Shown: one piece after another, positions 6,701-24,607 of the stretch
How the letters are laid out: each line of letters begins with the position of its first letter
How positions within the stretch are numbered: position 1 is the stretch's first letter
Source: a virus
Virus record (IMG/VR): IMGVR_UViG_3300027896_004357
Coordinates: 1-26,077 of that record
Strand: one strand, 5' to 3'
Length of the DNA stretch: 26,077 nt
The notes under the pieces: generated by a model
What the model saw: the letters and a program-made list of their open reading frames with translations, nothing else
What the model was told of the DNA's origin: nothing
The model's database searches: none
Program-made: the position numbers and the translations under genes

Positions 6701-7018
6701 CAAAATAACTTCGTTATAATCACCACTATGTATCTCCAAAAGGTCTTCCCTAATGGATTGCCATAATCCTTCGCATGGCCTACCAAAATAATAATCATCC
6801 TCCATCCACTGTTTCATTGGAACAGGTATTTCATCGTACTGCTCCTTCTCTCCAACATCTAACGCTACACTTCTTCCTTTTGACTCAAAATCTTCAAGAA
6901 TCTGAAGCAGGCATTCCCTCTCCCTTGGACTCATTTTCTCAAAATCAGTCCTCAAAATATCAATCACTTCATCGTCAGTTCTTTTAGTCCTGACTCTTTC
7001 CCCATCACTCAGAAGCAT
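3779..7018 (-). CDS. Terminase large subunit (packaging ATPase/nuclease) with an intein in the P-loop
   Basis: This is the motor ATPase and headful nuclease of DNA packaging. The precursor is 1079 residues; excising residues 115-523 gives about 670. The spliced ATPase site is GAIGVGK joined to STLG, a Walker A motif. Walker B is the ILDET stretch (Asp628, Glu629). The C-terminal RNase H-like nuclease shows HIDPSLTGDSAGFAVGH, a later MDSY motif and the family's final KDVSDSLAG motif. The ATG at 7018 overlaps the end of the upstream gene by 14 bases, and the stop overlaps the portal start. Without splicing the P-loop is broken, so packaging should depend on the intein. The ribosome site is weak, fitting coupled translation. 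Confidence 0.95.
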   Translation of the reverse strand: MLLSDGERVRTKRTDDEVIDILRTDFEKMSPRERECLLQILEDFESKGRSVALDVGEKEQYDEIPVPMKQWMEDDYYFGRPCEGLWQSIREDLLEIHSGDYNEVILSGAIGVGKCLSEDSDIYDINSGKRVEIKDWKSDRSIIQSFSVFGESKKTISTGHVFSGEKSCIEIVTRSGKRLICTSNHPLLTRNGWVDAGSCCGKLIATPRFVPRPINELKISDAEVVFVAYMLAEGACTSGNFGFTNFDDCIVEEFRFVATSLADFRKNDKWHQRGKAGVSEKKRGTYYPRGCKWIKRKYKELNVLSKNKRIPAIFYGLSDRQLGLFINRLFACDGWIGKSPYSVSITLASEKFIDDIQFLLLRFGIHSAKSSTPKKIKEKKFDAWTLNVLGEEVKTFFDNIGFIRAKEEKCKDALLMCNSVKHNTNVDIVPVGYEEMKEIRKDVGGISKEVWYKIRVPKGQHYGRKGFAKLCESLSLGDKWKWLVGDIYWDEAVSIKDAGKRKVYDIEVNKNRNFVANGIIVHNSTLGEISLCRQLYEIGCLRNPQRTYGLRSGSTIALVNFSVSEKLAQKVVFDAISENIKMSPWFSKNFNPERTKSELRFPKNIWVTCSSSSPHSVLGLNVIAAILDETNFMGELSKEQRSGYKKWEHIDNAQILYTSIKRRIKSRFEMFGRLPGILLLISSKRTVSDFTERRILEASDERHVFVSERSLWEAKPERYEGALRFKVIVGNENFGSRIVRYDEDLVEAKEKECRVIDVPVDFKSDFEKDLDQSLRDLAGVATESVYPFIRKREKIEECIDLTAVHPCVSVQWVFGEPLEIQWERLVRKTDGVIKPLQNPNAVRHIHIDPSLTGDSAGFAVGHIESYVNVRRRDVMNEMTVERAPFIVIDFLLKIIPPPGGEIVIAELRNLVYEFHEHGFSIGFVSMDSYIKADPIQILSSKGFKAAHVSMDLSVIPYQTLKDCLYDNRLRMYRYDPVITELRELEYSVRKKKVDHREDSSKDVSDSLAGVVYTLSNSSYAEMPISMYSQSFNEDAIKGKIQEVIKKSSVGRADPLDMLISDDEDARDVGSQLIYPGDYL
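5450..6676 (-). mobile_element. LAGLIDADG-type intein in the terminase Walker A motif
   Basis: The 409-residue intein begins with Cys115 right after GVGK and ends IIVHN at residue 523 before Ser+1. Splicing motifs look complete: Cys1, TSNH (TxxH, residues 182-185), VYDIEV...NRNF as block F, penultimate His and terminal Asn. The middle contains two LAGLIDADG-like helices, VFVAYMLAEGA (about 225-235) and GLFINRLFACDGW (about 323-335), so homing activity is plausible. The second motif and the LLLRFGI segment closely resemble the DnaB intein of this genome, suggesting common descent. Confidence 0.92.
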
Positions 7019-7796: not shown

Positions 7797-8614
7797 TAAT
7801 ACTCAGCCCCTTCTGTGTTTTCAACAATGTCCACATTAGGCTCTATATCATCAATTCCGGTATCCTTCCAATTCTTCACAAACTTACCAATAGCAGTATC
7901 AGCCTTTATATTCTTCTCCTTTGCAGTATCCAAAAGACTCTTCACGGAATTATAAACAGCACCATCCTCACACATTACAAATATACCCTCTTTTGACCCA
8001 AAACTAAAAGAAACGAAATTAAACCGCAGAGTATCACCATGCTCATTAAATATCTTATTAAGAACAGAACTAAGACCGTCTACTGTTTTTATTTCCTTCA
8101 TTGACTCATCAAACTTCTCTATCTGCTTCTTTGTCATCCCAGAACTTTCAAGAGAGTCTCTTATGCTCGAAGTCAATTTATCCCAAGCAAACTTATCCGT
8201 AAAACCCATCAAATCCATTAATGACTCTGACCCATACTTCTTTTCCATCTCATCGTACAAAACAGCAAATTTCTCAGGGTCTATCTTTCCATGAATGATA
8301 TTAAGTCTAACGCTGACAAGCTTTTGCAAATCCTCATCTTTCCACTTTTCATCTGTAACAACAGTGCAATCAATTTCAGTATACCCCAAAACCTTTGACG
8401 CTTCCCATCTATGCTGTCCACCTATGATTCTATACTTCTCCTCCGGTCCCTCTATTGGAACAACATCTATTGGGGTTATAAATCCAAGCTCTCTAATCTC
8501 CTGAACAAGCCTTGCAAACTCAATATCATCCATTTTATTAACATTCCACACATTCGGAACAATCTTATCAATAGCAATCTTCCTATGCTCATTCTCCCGT
8601 ATTCCTTCAATCAC
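7796..8614 (-). CDS. ParB-like N-terminal domain protein
   Basis: The first 100 residues match the ParB/sulfiredoxin-like fold. They contain IVPNVWNVNKMDD, then LVQEIRELGFITPIDVV, then the signature GGQHRWEA (residues 65-72), which in ParB proteins forms the nucleotide-binding pocket. The remaining 170 residues are helical and unassigned. The start is GTG at 8614, chosen because GGAGG stands four bases upstream and no nearby ATG exists; it overlaps the end of the 8607-11288 gene. ParB-fold proteins are common beside phage terminase genes, where they may bind DNA or regulate transcription. Whether this one is a CTP switch, nuclease or DNA-binding factor cannot be told. Confidence 0.8.
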   Translation of the reverse strand: MIEGIRENEHRKIAIDKIVPNVWNVNKMDDIEFARLVQEIRELGFITPIDVVPIEGPEEKYRIIGGQHRWEASKVLGYTEIDCTVVTDEKWKDEDLQKLVSVRLNIIHGKIDPEKFAVLYDEMEKKYGSESLMDLMGFTDKFAWDKLTSSIRDSLESSGMTKKQIEKFDESMKEIKTVDGLSSVLNKIFNEHGDTLRFNFVSFSFGSKEGIFVMCEDGAVYNSVKSLLDTAKEKNIKADTAIGKFVKNWKDTGIDDIEPNVDIVENTEGAEY

Positions 8615-11288
8615 ACAAAACCTCCACTCCTAAAATGTTATCTATTTCTTTCTTAACATCTTCAACAGATATATCCTTCATACATTTTCCATCAATAGGA
8701 CATTCCCCACCACTAACCTTGGATACGTCTGGATTCTCTCTATGACATGGTTGACAATCAATACCTTTATAAATATTAACATTCTGGTCATATCCAAAAC
8801 CAATCGGCTCGGTACTTCCGAACAAAATTATTGACTTTTTCTTAACCGCAAAAGACGCATGATTCGTAAAACTATCTATTCCTATATGTAAATCTGAATG
8901 CTTTATTAAAGACACAGCCTCCTTAAAAGACCGTCCTATAAAATTACTAACCTCTGGAAGCAATCTTTCCTGTATGCCTCCGATCTGAACCGGCATATAA
9001 TGTATCTCTCTTAAATACTTGGCAATATCAACCCATCTATCATATATCCAATCCTTATAGACAGACCAACCAGACTGAATATGCATTGTCACATACCCCT
9101 TAAAAATTGGCTTAGAAAATCTTGCGGTACTCATACCAACCATCTCTTCGTCAGAACTCAATGTGCATTCCAAATCCATACTATTATCAGGCAATCCAGC
9201 GCACTCATTGAATATTTTCACCAAATGCCTTGACAGTGGCTTTTCAGGCCAGCCTTCGTTCTTCAAAGACGAATTCTTGTCTGGATACGAGAAATAAATT
9301 TTCACATCCGCATCAAACTTTGACTCCGATACCAATTCATCTATATACTTATTTCCCTCTAATATTCCAAAATTATTCGGGTGAGTAATGTACCTTATCT
9401 TACATCCCTTATACTTTTCCTTCAATCCCCTCAGTGCTGCCGTTGTCATCAAACAGTCGCCAATAGCACCCCATCGGTAACATTCAATTACCTTTATAGC
9501 GTCCTTAACTTCGCTCTTCGGCATTAATCCATAGAAATATTCTACCCTATTTTTAAGCCATTCATCATCCGGACATAACTCGAATGCCTTCTTCGCATGT
9601 TTCCAAGCCTGCAAATAATTTCCCTGTATATCAAAACAGGCAAATAAATATCTGTATGGCGCATGAGAATAAATCGTTGTCTCTTTCCATAAAACCTTTT
9701 TCTTCTCTTCAAGATTAATGCACTCATACATCTTCTTAACACAATCTTCATATCTTCCAAGATAGAAATAACATTCTCCAATGTAATAAATCGGCTCCTT
9801 CCATCCAGCGTCAAACCATGCACATTTCTCAAAAGCCTCTATAGCAAGAGTGTACATTTTCAATTGCATGTACGTCTGTCCAATGTACTTCTGCGACATG
9901 AATTTTTCTTCCGCAAAAGTAGAATAATGCTGGTACCTCAAAAACATCCCAACAGCTTCGTCAAATCTTCCAACATCCTTCAACGATGTTGCTAAATAAA
10001 ACAACGTTCTTGAATCATTTGGGTTGTCTTCGTTCTCTTTAAGCAATATCCGTAGGTTCCTATCACCCCTATTCTCAGCACACACCTTATGCGTTTTATG
10101 ACGTACATTCAAATCTGAAAATTTCTTGTTCCTACCAATTAAAACAGGATACTCATGCACCCTACCTCTAAAGTGTATCCCCATTCCATTTCTAAATAAT
10201 CTTGAATGCTGAAACACTTCACTTCCATACAAAAGATTACATCCAAAAGAATCATAAGGCTCTTTCATCATTTTTAATATTTCTTCTGGATTTTCAACAA
10301 CATCATCACAGTCCATCCATAGCAGCCATTCACCTGTAGCTTTACGAAGCGAATAATTTCTTGCTGCTGCAAAATCATCAACCCACAAAAAATCATATAT
10401 CTTTACATTTTTAAACTTTCCAACAACTTTTTTCGTATCATCGGTCGATCCAGTATCAACCACTATTATCTCATTAGCAATATTCTTAATACTATTCAAA
10501 GCATCCGTAATATTCTCTGCTTCATTTTTTGCTATCATGCATACTGATAACTTTATGCTCTTACCAATCCTTGTTACTACCCTGCGTTTTCTCAAATAAA
10601 AATCGCTTTGTCCTGCACCAGGTAGATGATCTACCTTAAATATCTCTAATCCTACTTTATCAGCCAGTATATCCATCGAAGCGGTAGAATAGATGTAAGG
10701 ATGTATACTTAAATGATGATCTGTTAAATGCCTGTTTACTCCTTCTATATCAATGTTTGGAAGCCTTACAAAAACAATCCCCTCATCTGACAAACATTCA
10801 TTAACTTTCTTCATTGTCTCTATTGGATGATAAAAATGCTCTACAACATGAATCAGCGTTACAAGATCAAACTTGCCTTTCAACCACTCGCTAAACTCTA
10901 CAACATCCATCTCCTCAAAATCTTCACATACAGCATTAACGCCAAGTTCTTCTCCGTACTTTAAAACATCTTCTATTCCATCCAGCGCCAGTACATACGC
11001 CCTATCTTTTATACAGCTCAAAAAATATGGGTATTTTGATCCTATATCTAAAACAGTTTTCGGCGAATAAATCTGGTAAAGAGCATTCGCGAGTGCTCTA
11101 TTTACTGCCTTATCATGGTCACTCATTAAATGACCAGACTTAGGGCCAACTCCCCCCTCCTTTGGCCCTTCATACACCTTTTTTGGCAGTGTTTCCTGCA
11201 TACAAAACCCACATGAATCACATACCTTATAAGCAGGAAACTCCTTCAAATCCTGAAACGATTCTTTTTCACAAATTGGACAAATCAC
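8607..11288 (-). CDS. Fusion protein: methyltransferase, family 2 glycosyltransferase, TPR repeats and GT9-type glycosyltransferase
   Basis: An 893-residue multidomain enzyme. Residues 1-30 are a Cys4 zinc ribbon (CPIC...CDSC), followed by a class I SAM methyltransferase (VLDIGSKYPY at 79-88, LIHVVEHFYHP about 145-154). Residues 246-400 form a GT2 domain: LSVCMIAKNEAENI, EIIVVDTGSTDDT, and the metal-binding DCDD motif (326-329). Residues about 410-600 are TPR-like repeats. Residues about 625-885 resemble GT9 heptosyltransferases (RWGAIGDCLMTTAALRGL, IGIDSFTNHASFA, ILFGSTEP) and include a Cys-rich CQPC...CPIDGKC segment. It probably modifies a surface sugar or a virion component; the substrate is unknown. 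The GTG start at 11288 overlaps the preceding stop as GTGA. Confidence 0.88.
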   Translation of the reverse strand: MICPICEKESFQDLKEFPAYKVCDSCGFCMQETLPKKVYEGPKEGGVGPKSGHLMSDHDKAVNRALANALYQIYSPKTVLDIGSKYPYFLSCIKDRAYVLALDGIEDVLKYGEELGVNAVCEDFEEMDVVEFSEWLKGKFDLVTLIHVVEHFYHPIETMKKVNECLSDEGIVFVRLPNIDIEGVNRHLTDHHLSIHPYIYSTASMDILADKVGLEIFKVDHLPGAGQSDFYLRKRRVVTRIGKSIKLSVCMIAKNEAENITDALNSIKNIANEIIVVDTGSTDDTKKVVGKFKNVKIYDFLWVDDFAAARNYSLRKATGEWLLWMDCDDVVENPEEILKMMKEPYDSFGCNLLYGSEVFQHSRLFRNGMGIHFRGRVHEYPVLIGRNKKFSDLNVRHKTHKVCAENRGDRNLRILLKENEDNPNDSRTLFYLATSLKDVGRFDEAVGMFLRYQHYSTFAEEKFMSQKYIGQTYMQLKMYTLAIEAFEKCAWFDAGWKEPIYYIGECYFYLGRYEDCVKKMYECINLEEKKKVLWKETTIYSHAPYRYLFACFDIQGNYLQAWKHAKKAFELCPDDEWLKNRVEYFYGLMPKSEVKDAIKVIECYRWGAIGDCLMTTAALRGLKEKYKGCKIRYITHPNNFGILEGNKYIDELVSESKFDADVKIYFSYPDKNSSLKNEGWPEKPLSRHLVKIFNECAGLPDNSMDLECTLSSDEEMVGMSTARFSKPIFKGYVTMHIQSGWSVYKDWIYDRWVDIAKYLREIHYMPVQIGGIQERLLPEVSNFIGRSFKEAVSLIKHSDLHIGIDSFTNHASFAVKKKSIILFGSTEPIGFGYDQNVNIYKGIDCQPCHRENPDVSKVSGGECPIDGKCMKDISVEDVKKEIDNILGVEVLCD

Positions 11289-15435: not shown

Positions 15436-16248
15436 TTATTTTATCCATCCTTGTTCGATATAATATTTTTCTCTGCTTTTCCATCTTCTCATACATAATT
15501 CATCATTGGCATCTATAAATTCTACCACTATCGGCCTCTTCTTTGTATCGCATACCCTTAAAATACGCCCAACACTCTGAACCACATCTCCTTTAGGCGA
15601 AGCAAGATAAAGCGTATCCAAATCATGAATATCCAGCCCTTCGGCGGCCATACTGAATGTGGCAAAAATCACACTTGCCTTTGCTGCAACTCTAAGCTCT
15701 TCTTCTTTTCTCCCACCAACATAGAAATCAATACTTCTCGCCATTTTTCGTTCATTCAACAACTCGCCTAACTTTACAGAAAGAATATCTAAGTGATCCA
15801 ATCTATCACTTAAAATTAAACACTTTCTACTCTTCTCACACGCAAGGAATATCTCATTCACTATTAATCTATTACGCTCACCATTCTTACAAAGTATCGT
15901 AATCTTTCTTTCATCACTCGGCTTATAATCACCTTTTACAGACATCTTAAATGGCGCTGCTATTTTACGAATACCTACATCAATTTTATCCAAATGGCCT
16001 TTATAAATAACGTCACCAGTAGTATTAAAAAACACTCTCTCCGTACAATCCTTGCGACTTGGGGTAGCAGAAAGGCTAAGCCTGAATCTTGGATTGAATC
16101 TTGGCATTGCCTGTGAGAACGAAACGGCACTTGCGTGATGACAATTATGTACTAACCCACATGTCGTAAAAAAATTATGATTTTTTTCTACTTCTATATC
16201 AAAAACATTTTCTAGCTCCTGTACAACAGACTTTCTTACTATTTTCAT
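15436..16248 (-). CDS. C-terminal part of a split SF2 helicase, starting with a C-intein
   Basis: This 270-residue gene supplies the second half of the helicase encoded at 17174-18106. Residues 1-35 are a C-intein (VFDIEVEKNHNFF as block F, GLVHN at the end). From Cys36 the helicase resumes with CHHASAVSF, completing the DECH motif II with the other half. Motif III is SAT (60-62), and motif VI is QSVGRILRV near the C-terminus. Trans-splicing would give a helicase of about 448 residues, similar in plan to phage UvsW and other COG1061 enzymes that unwind branched DNA. The ATG at 16248 directly follows the endonuclease stop (TAAATG), with GGGGA eight bases upstream. Each half alone lacks motifs needed for activity. 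Confidence 0.92.
   Translation of the reverse strand: MKIVRKSVVQELENVFDIEVEKNHNFFTTCGLVHNCHHASAVSFSQAMPRFNPRFRLSLSATPSRKDCTERVFFNTTGDVIYKGHLDKIDVGIRKIAAPFKMSVKGDYKPSDERKITILCKNGERNRLIVNEIFLACEKSRKCLILSDRLDHLDILSVKLGELLNERKMARSIDFYVGGRKEEELRVAAKASVIFATFSMAAEGLDIHDLDTLYLASPKGDVVQSVGRILRVCDTKKRPIVVEFIDANDELCMRRWKSREKYYIEQGWIK
16144..16248 (-). other. C-terminal half of a split intein (35 residues)
   Basis: The segment has block F with the usual Asp (VFDIEV), the HNFF motif and block G GLVHN with penultimate His and terminal Asn. Cys follows as the +1 extein residue. Its length matches the 35-40 residues of natural C-inteins such as those of cyanobacterial DnaE. Its N-terminus is basic (MKIVRKS), opposite to the acidic end of the N-intein, as seen in natural split pairs that associate electrostatically. 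Confidence 0.9.
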
Positions 16249-17121
16249 TTAAGATTTCCCCAATTTATATGCCATTGAATCAAAAATATATGGCTTAACA
16301 ATATTAATTAATTTTCCGCTCTCCTCAACATTCATCCTTAAATACCAATATTTCCCTTTGGTAAAAGAAGGAATCGTCAAAATATCGAATTTTCTTTTTA
16401 TCATATCTGACATTAAAAACACTTCGTCTTTTTTATATCTCTCTGTATGAAAACTTGCACTTTTCTTAGAAATACTCCCATCATCCATATACCACCATGC
16501 CATCACCTTTTCATTTAACAAGTCATAAATATTTTCGCATATTATTTTTCTACTTCTTTTCTCTACCTTCTCATAAAAAATATTAAAATATTCTTTAAAT
16601 ACCGGACTACAACTAGTTGTCAGCCTTGAATTAAAATCACCATATCCACCATTTTCAACAATATTAATATTCGCACCAAATCTTTTTAATATTTTTTCTT
16701 TTTCTAAATTATATCTATGTTGAATATATCCATGATTTATCACCAATCTTGGGTAATCAGATGTTCCATGTGGATACTGAATACTTCCATCACCCAAACA
16801 ACTCCCAACAATTAAATCTCGCTCTTCGCCAGAAACAACAAAACCTACGTTAATTTTTCTATTGCTATGGCCTGGACAAAATCTAGAATATTTGTAATTT
16901 TTAATTCTTCCTTTTAAAATAACATGCTCAACAACACCAATTTTTTCCCCACACCCACATTCACAAAACGGTGCATTTCTTTTAAATTCTTCTACTCTTT
17001 TTAATCTCTCATCATAACCTACAACTCTACTACTATGCCCTCTTGTATACTCTATTAATTTACCATTAACAAACTTGTTTTCTTCAACCAACTTTTCACA
17101 TCCACACTTACAAAACTTCAT
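16249..17121 (-). CDS. Freestanding LAGLIDADG homing endonuclease between the split-intein halves
   Basis: The 290-residue protein has two LAGLIDADG motifs of the kind found in intron-type endonucleases: DLIVGSCLGDGSIQ (about 103-116) and VMAWWYMDDGSIS (about 208-220), both keeping the catalytic acid. Its N-terminus has two copies of an FCxCGC...GH unit (FCKCGCEKLV...RGHSSR and FCECGCGEKI...PGHSNR), probably zinc-binding DNA-contact modules. It likely cuts helicase genes lacking the split intein so that the whole cassette is copied in by repair. The ATG at 17121 has GGAGG six bases upstream, but both are buried in a hairpin (17115-17174). Its stop TAA directly abuts, in frame, the start of the C-intein gene. 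Confidence 0.9.
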   Translation of the reverse strand: MKFCKCGCEKLVEENKFVNGKLIEYTRGHSSRVVGYDERLKRVEEFKRNAPFCECGCGEKIGVVEHVILKGRIKNYKYSRFCPGHSNRKINVGFVVSGEERDLIVGSCLGDGSIQYPHGTSDYPRLVINHGYIQHRYNLEKEKILKRFGANINIVENGGYGDFNSRLTTSCSPVFKEYFNIFYEKVEKRSRKIICENIYDLLNEKVMAWWYMDDGSISKKSASFHTERYKKDEVFLMSDMIKRKFDILTIPSFTKGKYWYLRMNVEESGKLINIVKPYIFDSMAYKLGKS

Positions 17122-17174
17122 TGCGTACCTCCATTGTATTTATTTATAAATATAATGGATACGTGCAATGAAGT
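17115..17174 (-). promoter_or_regulatory. RNA hairpin hiding the endonuclease ribosome site, with a late-type promoter in its loop
   Basis: On the minus strand ACTTCATTGC (17174-17165) pairs perfectly with GCAATGAAGT (17124-17115), which contains the endonuclease ATG. Inside, GTA/TAC and TCCATT/AATGGA extend the stem, the latter covering part of the SD GGAGG. The 18-base loop contains TATAAATA (17148-17141), identical to the T4 late promoter -10 element. The predicted start about six bases downstream would give a transcript lacking the 5' arm, freeing the ribosome site. T4 endonuclease genes are known to use this arrangement. The 5' arm begins at the last base of the N-intein stop codon, so terminating ribosomes could also open it. 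Confidence 0.75.
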
Positions 17175-18106
17175 CAATAAATATCGTCGCTTTCATTAAG
17201 ATTTATTGCCTCCACCCAGCCTCTATTTAATGTAAAAAACATGTGTTCTGGGGTACACCTTATAATATGTCCATCCTCCACTTCTATCTCTATTACCTCT
17301 CTTATCCCTTTTCTATAAACATTAACAACTGGCATATACTCTTTTTTGCCACTTACCTCATTAAAACTCAATACATCAATAGTTTCTCCATTCTCAAATT
17401 TCTCAACTATTTTACCAATATATTCAATTCCTTTATTTGTCATAACTTTTGCGTCATAAGCAAGACACTCGTCCACCCCAACTAACCCAAACCTATCATA
17501 TATCTCACCATATTCCCTTGACGCAAGAGAGTGAATCATACCTATTACAATTTCCTTATCATCAACATCACAAACATCTTGCTGTATTCTACCTATTCTT
17601 GCTCTCGGTAAAAACTCCTTAATCCTATTGCTCCACTGATTAACTAAAAACTCCTTATGCACAATAACAAGCGTTTTTAATTTTAATTCACTTACAGCCT
17701 TCAAAAAAATTGTTGTTTTCCCGGCTCCACATGGCAGTGAGATTATTCCACCATAAAAATCATCCCTATCAATCTTGCTGACAAAAGAATTAAATGGTGC
17801 TATCTGACCTTCTCTTAACTCGCCCTTAAATCCTAGCATATCACCATCTATAGCATCACCGTAAGAAACATCAATTTTTAAATCCAACTCTTCTTTCTTA
17901 GGCATTGTCTTCAAAAAGAAAAAAAGAGGAACCCCAAAAAGATTCCTCCTTTTATCCTCTACATACGTTATAATCACAGAAGGCTCCGAATGTATTGACG
18001 TTGCTCTTTGCTTGATAGTCAATACTCTTCTCAAAATATCAAGTTTCTCTGGACTAACATCATCCATGTTAATCCATGCCATATTACTTATTGTTACTCT
18101 TATCAT
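17174..18106 (-). CDS. N-terminal part of a split SF2 helicase, ending with an N-intein
   Basis: The first 213 residues are the front of an SF2 helicase: an N-terminal accessory domain, the LREGQIAPFNSFV Q-like segment, Walker A SLPCGAGKTT (123-132), motif Ia-type TLVIVHKEFLVNQW, and motif II cut after VGVDE (209-213). Residues 214-310 are an N-intein, after which the gene stops. The rest of motif II (CHH) is encoded at 16143 and below, beyond an endonuclease gene. Fusion by trans-splicing restores DECHH. The ATG at 18106 overlaps the upstream stop as TGATG, so translation is coupled. This is a genuine split rather than a frameshift: a full N-intein ends in a stop, and the second half has its own start and C-intein. 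Confidence 0.93.
   Translation of the reverse strand: MIRVTISNMAWINMDDVSPEKLDILRRVLTIKQRATSIHSEPSVIITYVEDKRRNLFGVPLFFFLKTMPKKEELDLKIDVSYGDAIDGDMLGFKGELREGQIAPFNSFVSKIDRDDFYGGIISLPCGAGKTTIFLKAVSELKLKTLVIVHKEFLVNQWSNRIKEFLPRARIGRIQQDVCDVDDKEIVIGMIHSLASREYGEIYDRFGLVGVDECLAYDAKVMTNKGIEYIGKIVEKFENGETIDVLSFNEVSGKKEYMPVVNVYRKGIREVIEIEVEDGHIIRCTPEHMFFTLNRGWVEAINLNESDDIY
17177..17467 (-). other. N-terminal half of a split intein (97 residues)
   Basis: It begins with Cys214 after VGVDE. Block A-type residues CLAYDAKVMTNKG follow, then the TPEH motif (TxxH) in block B and RGWVEAINL before the end. The length fits natural N-inteins (about 100 residues). It ends in an acidic tail (NESDDIY) complementary to the basic start of the C-intein. 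Cys1, the TxxH motif and the partner's HN-Cys+1 together make splicing plausible. Confidence 0.92.
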
Positions 18107-18726
18107 CAGTACGGAACTGCCTCTGTGTCATGTTCAGAATCCTTCGCCTTTGCAACTATTATTTTCAGCCTGTCAGCCTGCTCAGGCTTCAGTATTTCCT
18201 CATATTGATATGGTGAAATATCAACTGACGGAAACTGCTTAATCAGTTCAACCTTTTCAACAAAATCAAAATCATCTCCAACCGCCGAAGACTTTGCCGA
18301 AGCCCCTCGCGTCACGTCAAAGATACAACCTGTCAACCCACCATGCTTCTCGTCCTTTCTTGACAACTTCTCAAGAATAGGTATCTTTGCAGGAAACAAC
18401 AATTTCTCGTTTACATGCTTAACACCCTTCTTATCTGTATACCCCGTCATATCAAGAATCGTATAAAACCCAACATAGTACGGTCTGTTATCACTTGAAC
18501 ATAAAGCACATTCCTCCCCAAGATTCTCTCTTAAACATACAAACCAGTTCTTCCACGACCCATCAATACATACGTTATGCTCCCAGAATCTAAATGCAAA
18601 ATTATCAAGAAAACAAACCTTACGACTATCTCCTTGCTTAAGCCAAAATCTTTTAACAATCTCCTTCTTTGAGGAATGATCCATGTCATCTCTCAACCCT
18701 TCAGTACCTTTCTTATACCATGTCAT
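18106..18726 (-). CDS. Zinc-ribbon phage protein, probable ssDNA-binding protein
   Basis: The 206-residue protein opens MTWYKKGTEG, continues with FWLKQGDSRKVCFLD, NVCIDGSWKNWFVCLRE and a CALC pair, then PYYVGFYTILDMTGYTD and KLLFPAKIPILEKL. The layout, an OB-like barrel with a Cys pair and aromatic strands (Phe/Trp/Tyr), fits phage ssDNA-binding proteins of the gp32-like kind, and I recall similar phage proteins carrying that label. The acidic C-terminal region would also fit. It is coupled to the split helicase (TGATG). The ATG at 18726 has AAGGAGG six bases upstream. The family assignment is from memory of its pattern, not from an alignment. Confidence 0.6.
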   Translation of the reverse strand: MTWYKKGTEGLRDDMDHSSKKEIVKRFWLKQGDSRKVCFLDNFAFRFWEHNVCIDGSWKNWFVCLRENLGEECALCSSDNRPYYVGFYTILDMTGYTDKKGVKHVNEKLLFPAKIPILEKLSRKDEKHGGLTGCIFDVTRGASAKSSAVGDDFDFVEKVELIKQFPSVDISPYQYEEILKPEQADRLKIIVAKAKDSEHDTEAVPY

Positions 18727-18727
18727 T

Positions 18728-18919
18728 CTAAGCCTCCTTAATACGCTTCAACCATTGTTTATGATGTCTACTTATCGTTTGATAAGAAACACCTGTTATT
18801 TTCGCAAGAACAGTATACGGTGAAATCGGATTCTTCTTAAAAAAATCGTTTATCCCGCTATACCCAAGTTTTATAACTTTCTCACTAAGCTCTCTTTCAC
18901 TCTTTCTTATTTTTCTCAT
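18728..18919 (-). CDS. Small helix-turn-helix protein
   Basis: The 63-residue basic protein contains SPYTVLAKITGVSYQTISRHHKQWL, a typical helix-turn-helix in which VSYQTISRH would be the recognition helix. It overlaps the preceding gene as ATGA at 18919, with GGAGAG five bases upstream, and ends one base before the next ATG. It could be a small transcription regulator. Its target is unknown. Confidence 0.75.
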   Translation of the reverse strand: MRKIRKSERELSEKVIKLGYSGINDFFKKNPISPYTVLAKITGVSYQTISRHHKQWLKRIKEA

Positions 18920-19377
18920 TTCAACTCTCCTGCAAATGCTCTCCTTACCCTATCAGCAAGCACCTCTCTACGCATCTTAATCTTATACTTACCGACAGCC
19001 TTATCCACAGCATTTATATAATCCTCTCTATACCAACATCTTCCTAAATCATCAACATCAGGAGGCATTGGTAAAATACCCCACTTATGCCAATTGTCAA
19101 TAGTGATCCTTGTCACTCCTATCTTACGTGCAAAAGCCGCACGATTTAAAACTGATATACTCTTTCCTTCAATAACAACAACTTTCACTCTTTCCTCAAA
19201 AATATCTGTCTTAATCCTTGGACTAAGAACCCTATTAATAATCCTCCTCTTTCTTGTCTTATTGACAAGACTCTCTCTATACAAAGGGTCTGTCCAATAA
19301 CGATTCTTTCTCTTTTCGAGAATTTCCTTTCTATGCGACTTCGCATACTCTCTGTTATACTCCCTAATGTCTGTCAT
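18916..19377 (-). CDS. DNA-binding protein with a MerR-like helix-turn-helix
   Basis: The 153-residue protein starts at the ATG at 19377, which has AAAGGA nine bases upstream; the longer reading from 19413 would overlap iscB and lacks such a site. Residues 1-45 are very basic (EYAKSHRKEILEKRKNR...), resembling the DNA-contact tails seen with phage HNH-associated proteins. Residues about 75-125 read NRAAFARKIGVTRITIDNWHKWGILPMPP...RCWYREDYINAV, a MerR-like winged-helix signature. No nuclease motif is seen. It lies directly downstream of iscB and may be a regulator. Function is not assigned beyond DNA binding. Confidence 0.72.
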   Translation of the reverse strand: MTDIREYNREYAKSHRKEILEKRKNRYWTDPLYRESLVNKTRKRRIINRVLSPRIKTDIFEERVKVVVIEGKSISVLNRAAFARKIGVTRITIDNWHKWGILPMPPDVDDLGRCWYREDYINAVDKAVGKYKIKMRREVLADRVRRAFAGELK

Positions 19378-19400
19378 AATACTACATCCTTTAACGACCC

Positions 19401-20756
19401 TTATTGTTTCCAAATTAGGCTTCCAGAACTATATATTCTCTCTACATTTTTTGAAGGTACAACCCTCTTACTTCCATATTTACAAAAGCAATAAATATTC
19501 ACACCTCTATTTGCAATACCTCCGCATAAATATCTTTTACCTTTTATCCAAACAAAATCTCTATTCTGTATCTTATGTCTTTTTCTACGAATTGATGGAA
19601 TAAAACCCTTTCTATTCAATTGCAACTTTCTGTTATTTCTTCTCTTCTGCTCAATATCAATTGAATCAACTCTCTTCTGACCAACACCACCAGCTATGAC
19701 AAAAGCATCATTATAATGCGTTTTTTCTAATCTCTGCTTATTTCTGTTTGCATTTGTTATATAACCATAAGTAAACTCAAAATCTAAAATCTCTTTGAAT
19801 CTTTTACCAATAATCGACATAAACGTCTCTGTTTTATATTGCTTTGATTTCTTTAGTTTACTAAATAACTTTTCTTCATGCAATCTTTTATGGCAAGATT
19901 TGTGTAATAAAGCAATGTTTGAAGGCTTGTCAGTACCGCCGTCTTTTCTTGATATAACGTGATGAAGGTGTCCACTATTCTCTTTTGTCATTTCTTTGCC
20001 ACATAACTGACACTTATTCTTTTCTCTACTTGTTATAAAACTTCTTAAATTATAATACCCTAACAAATCCCCTTCTTGATATTCCTTACCTGCTATTTCT
20101 GGATTTTCTATCTTCTGAATATCGAAATTACCTACTTCAATTGTTACTTTACTTATCGGTAAAAATTTCTTTAAAGTATTAATCAAAGTTAAATGTGTAT
20201 CAAACTTTCTCTGTATTGAAGGTGGTAAATAACCAACATCCTTCTTTCTATTACTAAAACGTGGCTTTCTATACCTAAGCCTTCTTCTTCTACTTCTTCT
20301 ATACATTCCCTTTTCTATCAATCTTTCAGATGTTTTCTGATCTAAAATAAGTGTTCCTGAAATTAATTCTTTCTTATCAGTTATCACTGAAAAACCCATA
20401 TTCTTAAAACCAGAGTCTATTCCCAATGAACAGCATTGAACCTGATTCTCACACTCAAAATTCAACTTGATTACAAATGGATTCTGCTTTACAACATGAG
20501 CTTTTCCTCCTTCTAAAAGATGTCTCGCCTTTGCACTTGTACAAGGCATTAATGGTTTCCCTGTTACTGATAATACAAACAAAATGCTTTTAAAGCCGGG
20601 TGTTTGTTCCCGTTGATTCACTTCGGGATTGTTACAATCCAGTACTTTATCTTGTACACTGTCGCTTTCGCTCCTGTTTAATACAAGATTTGTAGAGCTA
20701 CAGACTAGTGAAGTATCCGTAGGTACGTTCTTTAACTCTAATTGTAACGTCTGCAT
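19401..20756 (-). CDS. iscB: IscB RNA-guided nuclease (RuvC + HNH)
   Basis: IscB is the ancestor-type relative of Cas9 that uses an omegaRNA to cut DNA. All parts are visible. There is the PLMP domain (GKPLMPCTSAKARHLLEGGK, from 66) and RuvC-I with Asp114 (SLGIDSGFKNMG). The Arg-rich bridge helix follows (RRSRRRRLRYRKPR, 153-166), then RuvC-II Glu207 (VTIEVGNFD). HNH has zinc Cys249/252, His265-His266, Asn280 and His289. RuvC-III has His347 and Asp350 (THYNDAF). Catalytic residues are intact. The ORF runs from ATG 20756, but the first ~57 residues are unlike IscB and coincide with the omegaRNA; the real start may be TTG at 20582. No tnpA is nearby. Confidence 0.93.
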   Translation of the reverse strand: MQTLQLELKNVPTDTSLVCSSTNLVLNRSESDSVQDKVLDCNNPEVNQREQTPGFKSILFVLSVTGKPLMPCTSAKARHLLEGGKAHVVKQNPFVIKLNFECENQVQCCSLGIDSGFKNMGFSVITDKKELISGTLILDQKTSERLIEKGMYRRSRRRRLRYRKPRFSNRKKDVGYLPPSIQRKFDTHLTLINTLKKFLPISKVTIEVGNFDIQKIENPEIAGKEYQEGDLLGYYNLRSFITSREKNKCQLCGKEMTKENSGHLHHVISRKDGGTDKPSNIALLHKSCHKRLHEEKLFSKLKKSKQYKTETFMSIIGKRFKEILDFEFTYGYITNANRNKQRLEKTHYNDAFVIAGGVGQKRVDSIDIEQKRRNNRKLQLNRKGFIPSIRRKRHKIQNRDFVWIKGKRYLCGGIANRGVNIYCFCKYGSKRVVPSKNVERIYSSGSLIWKQ

Positions 20757-20800
20757 AGTTTAACTAAGCTCCCTAGTCTCCAATAATATCATTTTAAAAT
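20585..20800 (-). ncRNA. Candidate omegaRNA (HEARO-type) of IscB
   Basis: IscB loci carry a structured RNA just upstream of and overlapping the ORF start; this region has the expected density of pairing on the minus strand. Examples: AGACTAG (20779-20773) with CTAGTCT (20708-20702), and GAGCT (20771-20767) with AGCTC (20699-20695). GTTACAAT (20748-20741) can pair with ATTGTAAC (20638-20631). CTTGTA/TACAAG encloses a GCGAAAGC hairpin. GGATTG-TAA-CAATCC lies at 20640-20626. CCCG/CGGG and a competing GGG/CCC pair follow near 20628-20597. Several pairings are mutually exclusive, as in pseudoknotted omegaRNAs. The guide would lie at the 5' end, around 20790-20820. Both ends are approximate. Confidence 0.65.
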
Positions 20801-20871
20801 CTATTATAGGGCTTGATTTAGAATCGTTTGATCTCAAAATAAACCTCTCATTCATAAATTTTAAAAATCCA

Positions 20872-21843
20872 TTATAAGGATTCAATATGGTTCTTAATTT
20901 CAATCGGCTCCATATCTCCAGGATCAACACCATCTTTTATATCGACCACGTTGATCTTAATTCCATGCTCTACTAATTTATTGTGAACACAAAGATTCAA
21001 TTCTCTTCCTGCCTTATCACCATCTCCCATTACAAATCCTTGCATACCACCACATAAATTCACAATCTTACTCGCGTGATTATCTGAAAAATCACCTCCC
21101 AATGTAGACAGCGGATTATATCCCGCCATCCATACCTTCAAAGCATCAAATGCACCCTCCACGATAATAAACTTATTACTTCTTTCCTTGTTAATCATCC
21201 CCTCGCCATATAATATTTTCTTCCTCTTTAATCCCGGCATGTGAAAATACGAATTCTCATCCTCTTTAACATGTACCCATCTAATAGAGTACCCAACAAA
21301 TCTCTTTTCGCTATCAAGTATCGGGAAAAACACCCCATGCCTTCCACGCTTCCAGAAACCTATCTTCCATGCCTTTATTGCCTCTATACTTATTTTTCTA
21401 ACATCAATCACATACTTAGGAACTACACCAAGACAATCGCCATACTCGGTAATATCCAACTCATTCAACTTTCCCCTTCTTGCAAGCCAGATATGCGCTA
21501 TATCGCTTCCATACCTCAAATGTCTTATCGAATCATAAGGCTTAAAAACAGGCTTATACACACCACCAAACTCTAACGACTTTACCTCACTAACCAATCC
21601 CACGCATCCTACAACTTTCTCAAATTCATACGCAAGACCAACAATGCTTCCCTTAAATTTACAGCCAAAACAATATACAAGTGACACTCCATTATCATTA
21701 ATCTTTATTGACATTGACGCTTTACGATCACCTTTTTCATGTCGATGTTTCAAAACACAATTACACATCACATTACCGCTTGCAACTGTCCTTGGCTTTG
21801 CACCCATCATGTCAATAACTTTAATTATATTTTGCTCTGTCAT
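20872..21843 (-). CDS. DnaG-like primase (zinc finger + TOPRIM)
   Basis: This makes RNA primers for phage replication. About 323 residues from the ATG at 21843, chosen because it has AAGGA a few bases upstream and overlaps the previous stop as ATGA; a GTG at 21873 is an alternative. The N-terminal zinc-binding module has CNC...HRH (about 27-35) and CFGC (58-61). The TOPRIM domain has Glu in FIIVEGAFDALK and the DGD motif in GFVMGDGDKAG. It is shorter than bacterial DnaG and lacks a visible C-terminal helicase-binding domain, as is common in phages. It belongs to the helicase loader-helicase-primase group. A possible weak terminator hairpin (GAATCC/GGATTT then T's) overlaps its stop. Confidence 0.9.
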   Translation of the reverse strand: MTEQNIIKVIDMMGAKPRTVASGNVMCNCVLKHRHEKGDRKASMSIKINDNGVSLVYCFGCKFKGSIVGLAYEFEKVVGCVGLVSEVKSLEFGGVYKPVFKPYDSIRHLRYGSDIAHIWLARRGKLNELDITEYGDCLGVVPKYVIDVRKISIEAIKAWKIGFWKRGRHGVFFPILDSEKRFVGYSIRWVHVKEDENSYFHMPGLKRKKILYGEGMINKERSNKFIIVEGAFDALKVWMAGYNPLSTLGGDFSDNHASKIVNLCGGMQGFVMGDGDKAGRELNLCVHNKLVEHGIKINVVDIKDGVDPGDMEPIEIKNHIESL

Positions 21844-22118
21844 TTCTTCCTTTGCTTCAACACCTTGTTCCACAAACTCTCAAAATGATCTATTACAGCC
21901 TTAACCTCTTTTTCTCCTATTAACTTTTTATCATACAATCTTATCACCCTATCTATTATCCCGTCAACAAAACCATCACCTGTCATTTCATGTATCTCTC
22001 TCATAAATCCTGTTTTTGTCCCAAAATCAATCCTATCACTATTCTCATAATAAACAACAGATATTCTCATTATAGCATCACTCAAATATTTAATCGGAAA
22101 CTCATCAAGTCTTCCCAT
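21840..22118 (-). CDS. Small unrecognised protein between helicase and primase
   Basis: No family is recognised. The 92-residue protein is mostly helical, with a hydrophobic heptad-like first half and a basic C-terminus ending KVLKQRKK. The ATG at 22118 shares TAATG with the helicase stop and has GAGGTG eight bases upstream. Its stop overlaps the primase ATG. Tight coupling on both sides suggests a replication accessory protein made in step with helicase and primase, by position only. Confidence 0.75.
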   Translation of the reverse strand: MGRLDEFPIKYLSDAIMRISVVYYENSDRIDFGTKTGFMREIHEMTGDGFVDGIIDRVIRLYDKKLIGEKEVKAVIDHFESLWNKVLKQRKK

Positions 22119-24607
22119 TAAAAAGGCACCTCATCTTCATCAAAGGTTTTAACAATAACTTCGCTAAAATCAACATTCTCAAAATCCCACTTCAATATCA
22201 TCTTCTCCATAACATCACCTTCTCTAACCTTAATGGACTGAATGTTCATTATCTTATCAGCCCTCATATCAACGTCCTGAACCATTACAAACACATAATC
22301 CGAATCCATTAAAAAAGCATCCGTAAAAGAAAGCATATCATCTCTTACATCTTTCTTTCCAGAAGCCTTTCTATTTAATTGTGACGCACCCACAAATGGT
22401 ATCGAATACTTTTTACTAAACCCTTTCAACGAATCAACAACATGAGCAATTCTATCATGCTTCTCAAGGCGTGTATTTCCCCTCTCCATCAAATACACAC
22501 CATCAACAAAGACTATTTCAGGCTCCGTCACTATTATCGCCTTTTCAAGAGCGGCAAGAGATGAACCAAAATCCTTCCCGATTATTTTAAATCTTCCATC
22601 ATCATCCTTAAGCAATCTGTCAACCATGTCTCTCATCTTGCTCTCCATCATACTACCCAGCTTACCCCTACGCATCGACTCATAATTTGCTCTCACATGA
22701 TTAGAAAGAAATCTTGCCAAAATTCTTGAATTCGACAATTCGGGAGAAACAAATAATACTTTCTTCTTGTCAACCTCCCATGCATGTTTCGCAAGCAATA
22801 TTAAACACCACGAATTATGAACAACAATATCATTTGCTATAAAATTATGCGTATCCTCTATTTCAAGATCATATACCTCTTTTTCTCCAACTTCATATAT
22901 GTTGACAATTTCATCAAACACAATCTCTTCTTCAGACATTCTTCTAAAATCTTCTATACCAGTTATATCAAAAAAACTTTTCGCTCTCTCTCTACTTATT
23001 CCATGTGATACATTTTTCTCATTTCTAAAAATATCGTATGTTCCAGTTATCCCCAAACTCTTTGCAATTTCTCTTGACCTAACATTTAATTCATCACTAA
23101 CAAAAAACATGTCAAAATTAGAATTTCTCTTTACCTCACATGATAAATTTAATTTGTCAGATTTCTCTCTTATAACAAAACCTATTCTATCCTTAAAAAT
23201 AGACACATTGCTACCAAAAATATCTACTATATAAGACCCACTAAAATCATTTCTTTTAAATCTTATTTTTGCAACTATACCAAATCTCAACAATAAAGAA
23301 TAAACATCATTCGCAAGTCTCTTAGAAACAGAACAATATCCCACACACCCATTTTTATCAATCCATCCGTCACAACTAAATAAAACCGACAAAAAATAGG
23401 CAACATTATCATCATTCATTTCAAACACTTCTTTTGGAATAAACTTATCATGAGATAATTTTCCAAGTAATCCATAACTACTAATTAATTTAACCGCATC
23501 ATTTGACTCATATCTTTTTAACTTCCTTGACGTAACAAAAGTATAATTAAGACTACTTCCTCTCTCCTTAACAACACAATCAAGTCTCTTTGCCGCCTCT
23601 TTCATAATATCCAATATTTCACTACTTCCGGTACTGAACGAAACCTCTCTACTACCACACTTTCTTATTCTCGTATGACCCTCTGCTATAATAACAGCAA
23701 GCATTCCTATAAAATCGCCATTCTCACTCGAAACACCATTTGCTCTAATTATTCTTGGAATAGCTATTCTATCACCAATCTTTAACCCATCATCAATTTT
23801 CATCCATTTCCTATGATACTCAAAAAATGGGTGACAAGACGTAACATCAATACATCTTCCTGTCCTTGTTATAACTCTAAAACATTTTTTAACACCAGAA
23901 TTAATCCATGCAACAACATTCCTGTATACAATCTTACCACTCTTTTCATTATAAGATGGTATCTCTCTCTCCCTAATATTACAAAATTCTTTTATGGTAA
24001 TTCTTCTTCCATTCTTACACTGAACAATAGAATCCCAAGACACACACTTCCCCAAACCAGACCTTGCAACAAACATCGCCAAATCTTCTGGTTGCCAACC
24101 CCCGGTCGTATCATTCAATGTTTTCCAAGGTGTCGATATTCCAGACAATCCTTCCTTTGCCCTCTCGTATGACTTCCATACATCTTCACCATAAGAAAAC
24201 AAACTCTTTATTTCTTCAGGTGAAGTAAGCCCCCTACTTATCTCTTTAATACCATCATTCATTTTTTCGAGTGCTTCTATACCCTTGCCCCTATCCATCA
24301 ATGGATATATCTCACCCAGCTTAATCGTCATCTTATTATAAACATCACGATTAATTATCTCACTCGAATAAAATCCAACTTCAGCGTCACATTCAACAAA
24401 AAAACTTGCGGAAAAAGCATCCTCTAAAATACTAAATGTGGGTATCTTTCTATACTTTCCAAAATAATCTATACAAAAACGATAGGCCCCTCTTTCCGGC
24501 TCCTTAATCATCTCAGGTGCAATAGATGTAATACACTCGGCAAACACCTTAACATCTGCTACCTCTATCAACTTACTAAGAAAAAACTTATCAATCGAAA
24601 CCGTCAT
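22118..24607 (-). CDS. DnaB-like replicative helicase interrupted by an intein in Walker A
   Basis: The hexameric replicative helicase. The precursor is 829 residues, about 418 after excision of residues 188-598. N-terminal helical domain (1-130), then STPWKTLNDTTGGWQPEDLAMFVARSGLGK, the RecA-like core with Walker A split by the intein; the other half is SWCLILLAKHAW. Walker B is EIVFVDGVYLM (697-707). GASQLNRK (740-747) matches the conserved DnaB motif with Gln and Arg. The last residues are acidic (DEDEVPF). It is preceded by its likely loader with a six-base gap. The ATG at 24607 has AGGATAGGG upstream. Since the P-loop is broken, splicing is required for unwinding. Confidence 0.93.
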   Translation of the reverse strand: MTVSIDKFFLSKLIEVADVKVFAECITSIAPEMIKEPERGAYRFCIDYFGKYRKIPTFSILEDAFSASFFVECDAEVGFYSSEIINRDVYNKMTIKLGEIYPLMDRGKGIEALEKMNDGIKEISRGLTSPEEIKSLFSYGEDVWKSYERAKEGLSGISTPWKTLNDTTGGWQPEDLAMFVARSGLGKCVSWDSIVQCKNGRRITIKEFCNIREREIPSYNEKSGKIVYRNVVAWINSGVKKCFRVITRTGRCIDVTSCHPFFEYHRKWMKIDDGLKIGDRIAIPRIIRANGVSSENGDFIGMLAVIIAEGHTRIRKCGSREVSFSTGSSEILDIMKEAAKRLDCVVKERGSSLNYTFVTSRKLKRYESNDAVKLISSYGLLGKLSHDKFIPKEVFEMNDDNVAYFLSVLFSCDGWIDKNGCVGYCSVSKRLANDVYSLLLRFGIVAKIRFKRNDFSGSYIVDIFGSNVSIFKDRIGFVIREKSDKLNLSCEVKRNSNFDMFFVSDELNVRSREIAKSLGITGTYDIFRNEKNVSHGISRERAKSFFDITGIEDFRRMSEEEIVFDEIVNIYEVGEKEVYDLEIEDTHNFIANDIVVHNSWCLILLAKHAWEVDKKKVLFVSPELSNSRILARFLSNHVRANYESMRRGKLGSMMESKMRDMVDRLLKDDDGRFKIIGKDFGSSLAALEKAIIVTEPEIVFVDGVYLMERGNTRLEKHDRIAHVVDSLKGFSKKYSIPFVGASQLNRKASGKKDVRDDMLSFTDAFLMDSDYVFVMVQDVDMRADKIMNIQSIKVREGDVMEKMILKWDFENVDFSEVIVKTFDEDEVPF
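22814..24046 (-). mobile_element. LAGLIDADG-type intein in the DnaB-like helicase P-loop
   Basis: The 411-residue intein runs from Cys188 (after SGLGK) to Asn598 (IVVHN) with Ser+1. Splicing residues look complete: Cys1, TSCH in block B, VYDLEI...THNF in block F, and HN at the end. The endonuclease region has IGMLAVIIAEGH (about 300-311) and AYFLSVLFSCDGW (about 403-415) as LAGLIDADG helices. It shares layout, size and segments (CDGWI, LLLRFGI) with the terminase intein, consistent with paralogous inteins targeting two P-loops. Confidence 0.93.

What the first reader, a model, noticed from the sequence alone, without database searches (positions are those of the whole stretch)
19401..20850. 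Phage replication operon carrying an intact-looking IscB and omegaRNA
All IscB parts and catalytic residues are present (RuvC Asp114, Glu207, Asp350; HNH His265/His266, Asn280, His289; bridge helix; PLMP domain), and the upstream region has omegaRNA-like pairing. IscB is usually part of an IS200/IS605-type element; here it lies between primase and phage DNA-binding genes on the same strand. It could be a selfish element, or a phage tool that cuts competing phages lacking the insertion, as homing endonucleases do.
Basis: partly seen in the sequence, partly recalled or inferred. Interest (0 to 1): 0.76.

Follow-up and report, generated by a model that had tools for sequence, protein, structure and literature searches.

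The report
Phage IscB translated through its guide RNA
A virus of bacteria carries a small Cas9-like, RNA-guided DNA cutter (IscB) whose guide-RNA scaffold, normally non-coding, also encodes the first 57 amino acids of the protein; this arrangement recurs in a large, mostly viral group of IscB genes, so one RNA may serve as message and as guide.

Summary
In detail: 19401-20756(-) encodes IscB (NCBIfam guided_IscB, 305.8 bits; all catalytic residues present), preceded by a HEARO/omegaRNA (Rfam RF02033, E 1e-16; 82.0 bits, one below the curated cut-off because its 5' domain is a compact hairpin). In related phages primase is directly followed by the ssDNA-binding protein, so IscB (with a small HTH gene and a 63-aa ORF) is an insertion. 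No TnpA was seen. Phage-borne IscB/HEARO is already known.

In 36 distinct relatives the frame has 0 stops (expectation 36.5; the other two frames equal expectation). Spacing from start codon to the 3' RNA motif varies over eight lengths, always by multiples of three (33/33). Yet RNA pairing covaries strongly (28 of 37 pairs) and the peptide is disordered and barely conserved. Other HEARO/IscB loci, and three nested losses, keep the RNA with the frame closed.

Most likely this is a selfish RNA-guided homing element whose mRNA and guide RNA compete for one sequence. Homing was not shown: no empty site was found. Function is untested.

The parts
19387..20811 (-). Proposed IscB element (about 1425 nt) from left end CCCTATAATAG to right end AAAGGA
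   Evidence: Left end: start of the sequence shared with L132, L135, L136. Right end by homology to L135 (13/17) at the position where L132/L136 have 15/17 terminal inverted repeats; in the window the inverted repeat itself is not significant (10/17).
19401..20756 (-). IscB ORF, 451 aa, ATG start (20756-20754) inside the omegaRNA
20586..20756 (-). Codons 1-57: N-terminal extension encoded by the omegaRNA scaffold; predicted disordered (pLDDT about 30)
19404..20585 (-). IscB domains: PLMP, RuvC-I (D114), bridge helix, RuvC-II (E207), HNH (H265/H266, N280, H289), RuvC-III (D350), C-terminal WED/TAM-interacting region
   Evidence: domain names after PMC9640706
20612..20778 (-). HEARO/omegaRNA core (Rfam hit)
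   Evidence: RF02033 82.0 bits, E 1e-16; in 18 group A relatives 92.3% of cells paired, 28 of 37 pairs with two-sided changes
20778..20811 (-). Compact 5' hairpin (guide-adaptor-hairpin-like), replacing the larger 5' domain of most HEARO RNAs
   Evidence: Shared with L132, L135, L136; Rfam alignment lacks about 50 model positions here; OgeuIscB has a 14-bp guide adaptor hairpin directly after the guide (PMC9640706)
20586..20612 (-). Candidate 3' terminal hairpins of the omegaRNA (CGGG..CCCG and GCTTT..AAAGC), also coding
   Evidence: read from the sequence; inference by analogy with TH1/TH2 of OgeuIscB omegaRNA
20812..20828 (-). Candidate guide AACGATTCTAAATCAAG (17 nt; 3' boundary uncertain by up to 5 nt)
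   Evidence: Sequence just 5' of the conserved RNA start
19387..19403 (-). Candidate right end TAAGGGTCGTTAAAGGA, including the IscB stop codon
   Evidence: 13/17 identical to the L135 right end
19382..19385 (-). Candidate TAM GTAG (fits NNRR only after a 1-nt shift)
   Evidence: Sequence after the right end; L132 CTAA, L136 TTAA, L135 ATAG fit NNRR
20872..21873 (-). DNA primase (Toprim/DnaG-like), upstream neighbour
18916..19377 (-). MerR/HTH-like gene, downstream neighbour
   Evidence: phrog_19880 4.8e-09; in L021, L027 and L062 its homologue lies between helicase and RecA
18106..18726 (-). ssDNA-binding protein; directly follows primase in related phages

Best explanation
A phage-borne IscB/omegaRNA element without a visible tnpA, inserted co-directionally between primase and ssDNA-binding-protein genes of a replication operon. 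It belongs to a mainly viral group of IscBs in which translation starts inside the omegaRNA, so the scaffold core and terminal hairpins are also the coding sequence for a disordered N-terminal extension of about 57 residues. Shown by sequence: intact IscB, omegaRNA, insertion by synteny, frame kept open in step with RNA evolution. Inferred: read-through from the primase gene supplies an RNA beginning with a guide copied from the left flank; the same transcript is either translated (unfolding the RNA) or folded and bound by IscB; the complex cuts DNA that carries guide match plus TAM, i.e. the site without the element in a co-infecting or sister genome, and repair from the occupied copy spreads the element. 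Binding of IscB to the folded RNA would cover the start codon and limit further synthesis.
For: IscB. omegaRNA. Insertion: primase and SSB are adjacent in RcZahn, RHph_TM16, JP1 and L021, L022, L027, none with IscB between. Dual coding: frame 0 has 0 stops in 36 sequences against a column-permutation expectation of 36.5 (sd 4.3), while frames 1 and 2 equal expectation (171 vs 164, 153 vs 154); spacing changes all multiples of three, 33/33, against about 7/8/7 in other loci; SD-like motif before the ATG in 17/36 against 3.7 shuffled; several loci lack any start codon at the domain boundary; control HEARO loci have all three frames closed; nested losses L162, L164, L166 keep HEARO. Mobility: two copies in one phage contig, at different sites (L132, L136); relatives sit beside unrelated genes such as tail fibre.
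Against: No expression or cleavage data. No empty site or guide target found. The window's own Shine-Dalgarno is weak (GGGAG ends well over 10 nt before ATG) and its inverted terminal repeats are not significant. A TTG just inside the domain boundary could be an alternative start. The extension peptide shows no codon-position bias within the RNA part (pN/pS 0.91), so it probably has no function of its own. Autoregulation is inference.
Confidence: 0.72

Rival explanations
1. An ordinary IscB whose translation begins at the domain boundary (TTG at codon 59 or a nearby GTG) after a non-coding omegaRNA; the open frame upstream is a by-product of RNA conservation.
For: Many group A loci have GTG or TTG within a few codons of the boundary; solved IscBs lack the extension; the peptide itself is barely conserved and predicted disordered.
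Against: RNA conservation does not keep the frame open: other HEARO loci have stops in all three frames, stops are depleted only in frame 0, all length changes are multiples of three, Shine-Dalgarno motifs precede ATGCAG, and some loci have no start at the boundary.
Confidence: 0.12
2. A domesticated phage gene: IscB kept by the phage as a weapon against competing phages or the host, not as a mobile element.
For: Same strand as the operon; catalytic residues intact; no tnpA in the ORFs scanned.
Against: Relatives sit at unrelated sites in other phages, twice in one genome, and related replication operons lack it, as expected of a mobile element. The same window holds several inteins with homing endonucleases. 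Guide targets are unknown.
Confidence: 0.2
3. A decaying, non-functional remnant whose omegaRNA has lost its 5' domain.
For: HEARO score just under the curated cut-off; 5' domain about 50 nt shorter.
Against: The compact 5' hairpin is shared with L132, L135 and L136, with a stem kept through sequence change; ORF intact, catalytic residues invariant; OgeuIscB also has a single 5' guide adaptor hairpin.
Confidence: 0.07

Closest known systems
IscB-omegaRNA (OgeuIscB; HEARO nucleases such as MG35-1)
   Same: Same domains and catalytic residues, same HEARO core fold, guide at the RNA 5' end, adjacent to the gene
   Different: There the omegaRNA is described as 5' UTR (PMC9755519) and the protein starts after it; here the scaffold encodes residues 1-57, and the RNA 5' domain is compact
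TnpB and its omegaRNA (AmaTnpB, PMC10278001)
   Same: Guide RNA made from the nuclease's own mRNA, with a proposed cis-regulatory effect
   Different: Unrelated RNA and nuclease architecture; in TnpB the guide RNA comes from the 3' end of the message, here from the 5' end around the start codon
HEARO-bearing Silviavirus phages of Staphylococcus (PMC13346280)
   Same: IscB-like HNH nuclease and HEARO RNA in lytic phages
   Different: About 30% identical proteins; that paper only lists the RNA
Phage homing endonucleases and inteins
   Same: Proposed outcome: cut the uninterrupted site, be copied in
   Different: Target chosen by RNA rather than by protein; homing not shown here

Membership tests
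IscB (RNA-guided nuclease) | RuvC triad, HNH motif, bridge helix, PLMP domain | tested here: met
   NF040563 305.8 bits, cut-off 175; invariant D114, E207, D350, H265, H266, H289; fold match to solved IscBs
IscB (RNA-guided nuclease) | Associated HEARO/omegaRNA upstream, same strand | tested here: met
   E 1e-16, 82.0 bits against gathering score 83; covariation in relatives
IscB (RNA-guided nuclease) | omegaRNA is non-coding and the protein starts after it (descriptive of published cases, not required for membership) | tested here: not met
   Start codon inside the RNA in the window and 35 other distinct loci
IscB (RNA-guided nuclease) | RNA-guided cleavage next to a TAM | not testable with these tools
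   NNRR-like sequence after the right end in three relatives, in the window only with a 1-nt shift
IS200/IS605 transposon | Y1 transposase TnpA in the element | tested here: not met
   No Y1 transposase among the window ORFs scanned with Pfam; the record is a fragment
IS200/IS605 transposon | Structured ends bounding the element | tested here: inconclusive
   L132, L136 15/17 and L135 13/17 inverted repeats; window 10/17, not significant
Homing element | Guide or target matches the uninterrupted site of relatives | tested here: inconclusive
   No near relative with an empty site found; synteny shows insertion

The most novel reading that the evidence does not exclude
A phage-enriched IscB lineage uses one sequence as both guide-RNA scaffold and coding sequence, making a built-in switch: early transcripts are translated, then IscB binds the folded scaffold, blocks its own start codon and turns the same RNA into guide, so that nuclease dose is capped at the amount of its RNA partner.
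Probability: 0.35. Interest if true: 0.8.

Novelty: new variant of a known kind. Interest (0 to 1): 0.62.

Why it matters
IscB is the presumed ancestor of Cas9, and its omegaRNA is treated as non-coding. A large lineage in which the scaffold must satisfy both base pairing and an open reading frame raises a testable question: how one RNA is divided between ribosome and nuclease. It also parallels TnpB, whose guide RNA is cut from its own message, and it means annotated or cloned IscB proteins of this lineage may carry or lack a 57-residue tail depending on start choice, with the RNA hidden inside the gene.

Tried and rejected
Near relatives of the phage by primase and RecA peptides in viral contigs: none. 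Near DNA match in phages: none. RecA alignment search gave only about 30% identical relatives, useful for synteny but not for DNA-level empty sites. Empty-site probe: 0 hits. Relatives of the genes flanking L004 and L002, to define element ends by comparison: only the same contigs or very distant ones. SNORA8 and SNORD115 weak Rfam hits: chance. Decay of the 5' RNA domain: rejected, since the compact hairpin is shared by relatives. The permutation null ignores relatedness; frames 1 and 2, which match it, serve as control. L176 and L198 are open upstream but have a start codon at the domain boundary and a different upstream peptide, so they were left out of group A. The B spacing test included three bad anchors (L123, L178, L195), ignored in the quoted 7/8/7. 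The literature searches found no description of omegaRNA inside the IscB reading frame, but the first IscB-omegaRNA paper is not held, so prior mention cannot be excluded.

Full report
OBSERVATION. The minus-strand ORF 19401-20756 (451 aa) is IscB: NCBIfam NF040563 305.8 bits (cut-off 175) over aa 60-355, Pfam RRXRR and HNH. Rfam HEARO is at 20612-20778(-), 82.0 bits, E 1e-16, one bit under the curated threshold.

SETTING. The window is a 26,077-base viral record. Gene order DnaB, primase, [IscB, HTH, 63-aa ORF], SSB, helicase, RecA, Cas4-like matches phages of about 100 kb such as Rhodobacter RcZahn, Rhizobium RHph_TM16, Agrobacterium JP1, and many IMG/VR contigs, where primase is followed directly by SSB and no IscB is present. 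IscB is therefore an insertion in this lineage. No TnpA was found among scanned ORFs. Viral HEARO nucleases are known: over 16% of fragments in one survey (PMC9755519), and Silviavirus (PMC13346280).

THE OMEGARNA IS INSIDE THE READING FRAME. The IscB fold starts at residue 57-60, yet the frame is open upstream to an ATGCAG inside the HEARO core. The same was seen in all 13 first-found viral relatives and in MAG contigs from several phyla. Expanding with 80 viral and 28 genome loci gave 85 distinct sequences for the tree: 40 with the in-frame extension (group A), the rest without. In 36 group A sequences with ATGCAR (mean nucleotide identity 0.62), frame 0 has no stop; shuffling letters within alignment columns gives 36.5 (sd 4.3, minimum 26), whereas frames 1 and 2 show 171 and 153 stops against expectations of 164 and 154. 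The distance from ATGCAR to the 3' RNA motif takes eight values (131-164), all equal modulo three, in 33 of 33; in other HEARO loci the distances spread over all three classes. A Shine-Dalgarno-like motif precedes the ATG in 17/36 (shuffled 3.7, maximum 9), strongest in L114, L101, L102. Some group A loci (L004, L008, L011, L012, L132, L158) have no start codon near the domain boundary.

CONTROLS. HEARO RNAs of other loci have stops in all three frames. Three loci nested in the main A clade (L162, L164, L166) have closed frames but keep HEARO, so RNA conservation does not by itself keep the frame open. On the 85-sequence tree 32 of the 40 group A sequences fall in one clade of 35; the label needs six changes, so one origin with losses or a few gains are both possible.

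BOTH LAYERS ARE UNDER SELECTION. In 18 group A RNAs 92.3% of cells pair, 28 of 37 pairs show two-sided changes, covariation score 0.579 against 0.218 shuffled and at most 0.159 when slid. The peptide is hardly conserved in the RNA part (pN/pS 0.91, no codon-position bias), somewhat in the linker (0.69), clearly in the domain (0.43), and residues 1-56 are predicted disordered. So selection keeps the frame open, not the peptide.

ENDS, GUIDE, TAM. The window, L132, L135 and L136 share a compact 5' hairpin in place of the larger HEARO 5' domain, comparable with the guide adaptor hairpin of OgeuIscB (PMC9640706). L132, L136 (15/17, 0 of 1000 shuffles) and L135 (13/17, 9 of 1000) have terminal inverted repeats, the right one starting at or after the IscB stop; the window's right end resembles that of L135 (13/17), but its own repeat is not significant. 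This places the element at about 20811-19387, the guide at about 20828-20812 and a GTAG that could be an NNRR TAM. L132 and L136 are two copies in one 141-kb contig, at different sites; relatives neighbour unrelated genes.

MECHANISM. Shown: anatomy, insertion, dual constraint. Inferred: guide taken from the flank by read-through transcription; RNA-guided cutting of the unoccupied site and copying by repair (homing); competition between ribosome and IscB for the same RNA, giving negative feedback. No empty site was found, so homing remains a hypothesis.

NOVELTY. A new variant of a known kind: IscB membership is firm, while the coding omegaRNA was not found in the held literature (the founding paper is not held). 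The nearest parallel is TnpB, which makes its guide RNA from its own mRNA (PMC10278001).

Noticed in passing
15436-18106 (-): The helicase gene, contiguous in related phages, is split: 17174-18106 carries the N-extein and an intein N half, 16249-17121 is a LAGLIDADG_2 homing endonuclease ORF, 15436-16248 starts with an intein C half followed by the C-extein. This looks like a 'fractured gene' split intein with a LAGLIDADG nuclease between the halves.
   Followed up: partly
22118-24607 and 3779-7018 (-): DnaB and a 1079-aa ORF each contain a full intein with a LAGLIDADG domain; the T4-like portal gene 1527-3782 matches its family in two stretches and has a weak intein-type hit. Unusually many homing elements in 26 kb.
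   Followed up: partly
18916-19377 (-): The HTH gene downstream of IscB has homologues between helicase and RecA in L021, L027, L062 rather than next to primase; it may have moved or been carried.
   Followed up: no
L132 and L136 (contig IMGVR_UViG_3300032070_000613): Two diverged copies of the compact-omegaRNA IscB element in one phage genome.
   Followed up: partly
L161:215-463 and L161:1397-1657: Two HEARO RNAs about 1.2 kb apart upstream of one IscB; the first may be a solitary guide RNA.
   Followed up: no
L001:7103-8248 (+): A transposase of phrog_506 (possibly TnpB) lies about 2 kb downstream of the IscB.
   Followed up: no
8607-11288 (-): 893-aa protein with glycosyltransferase and TPR-like matches.
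   Followed up: no
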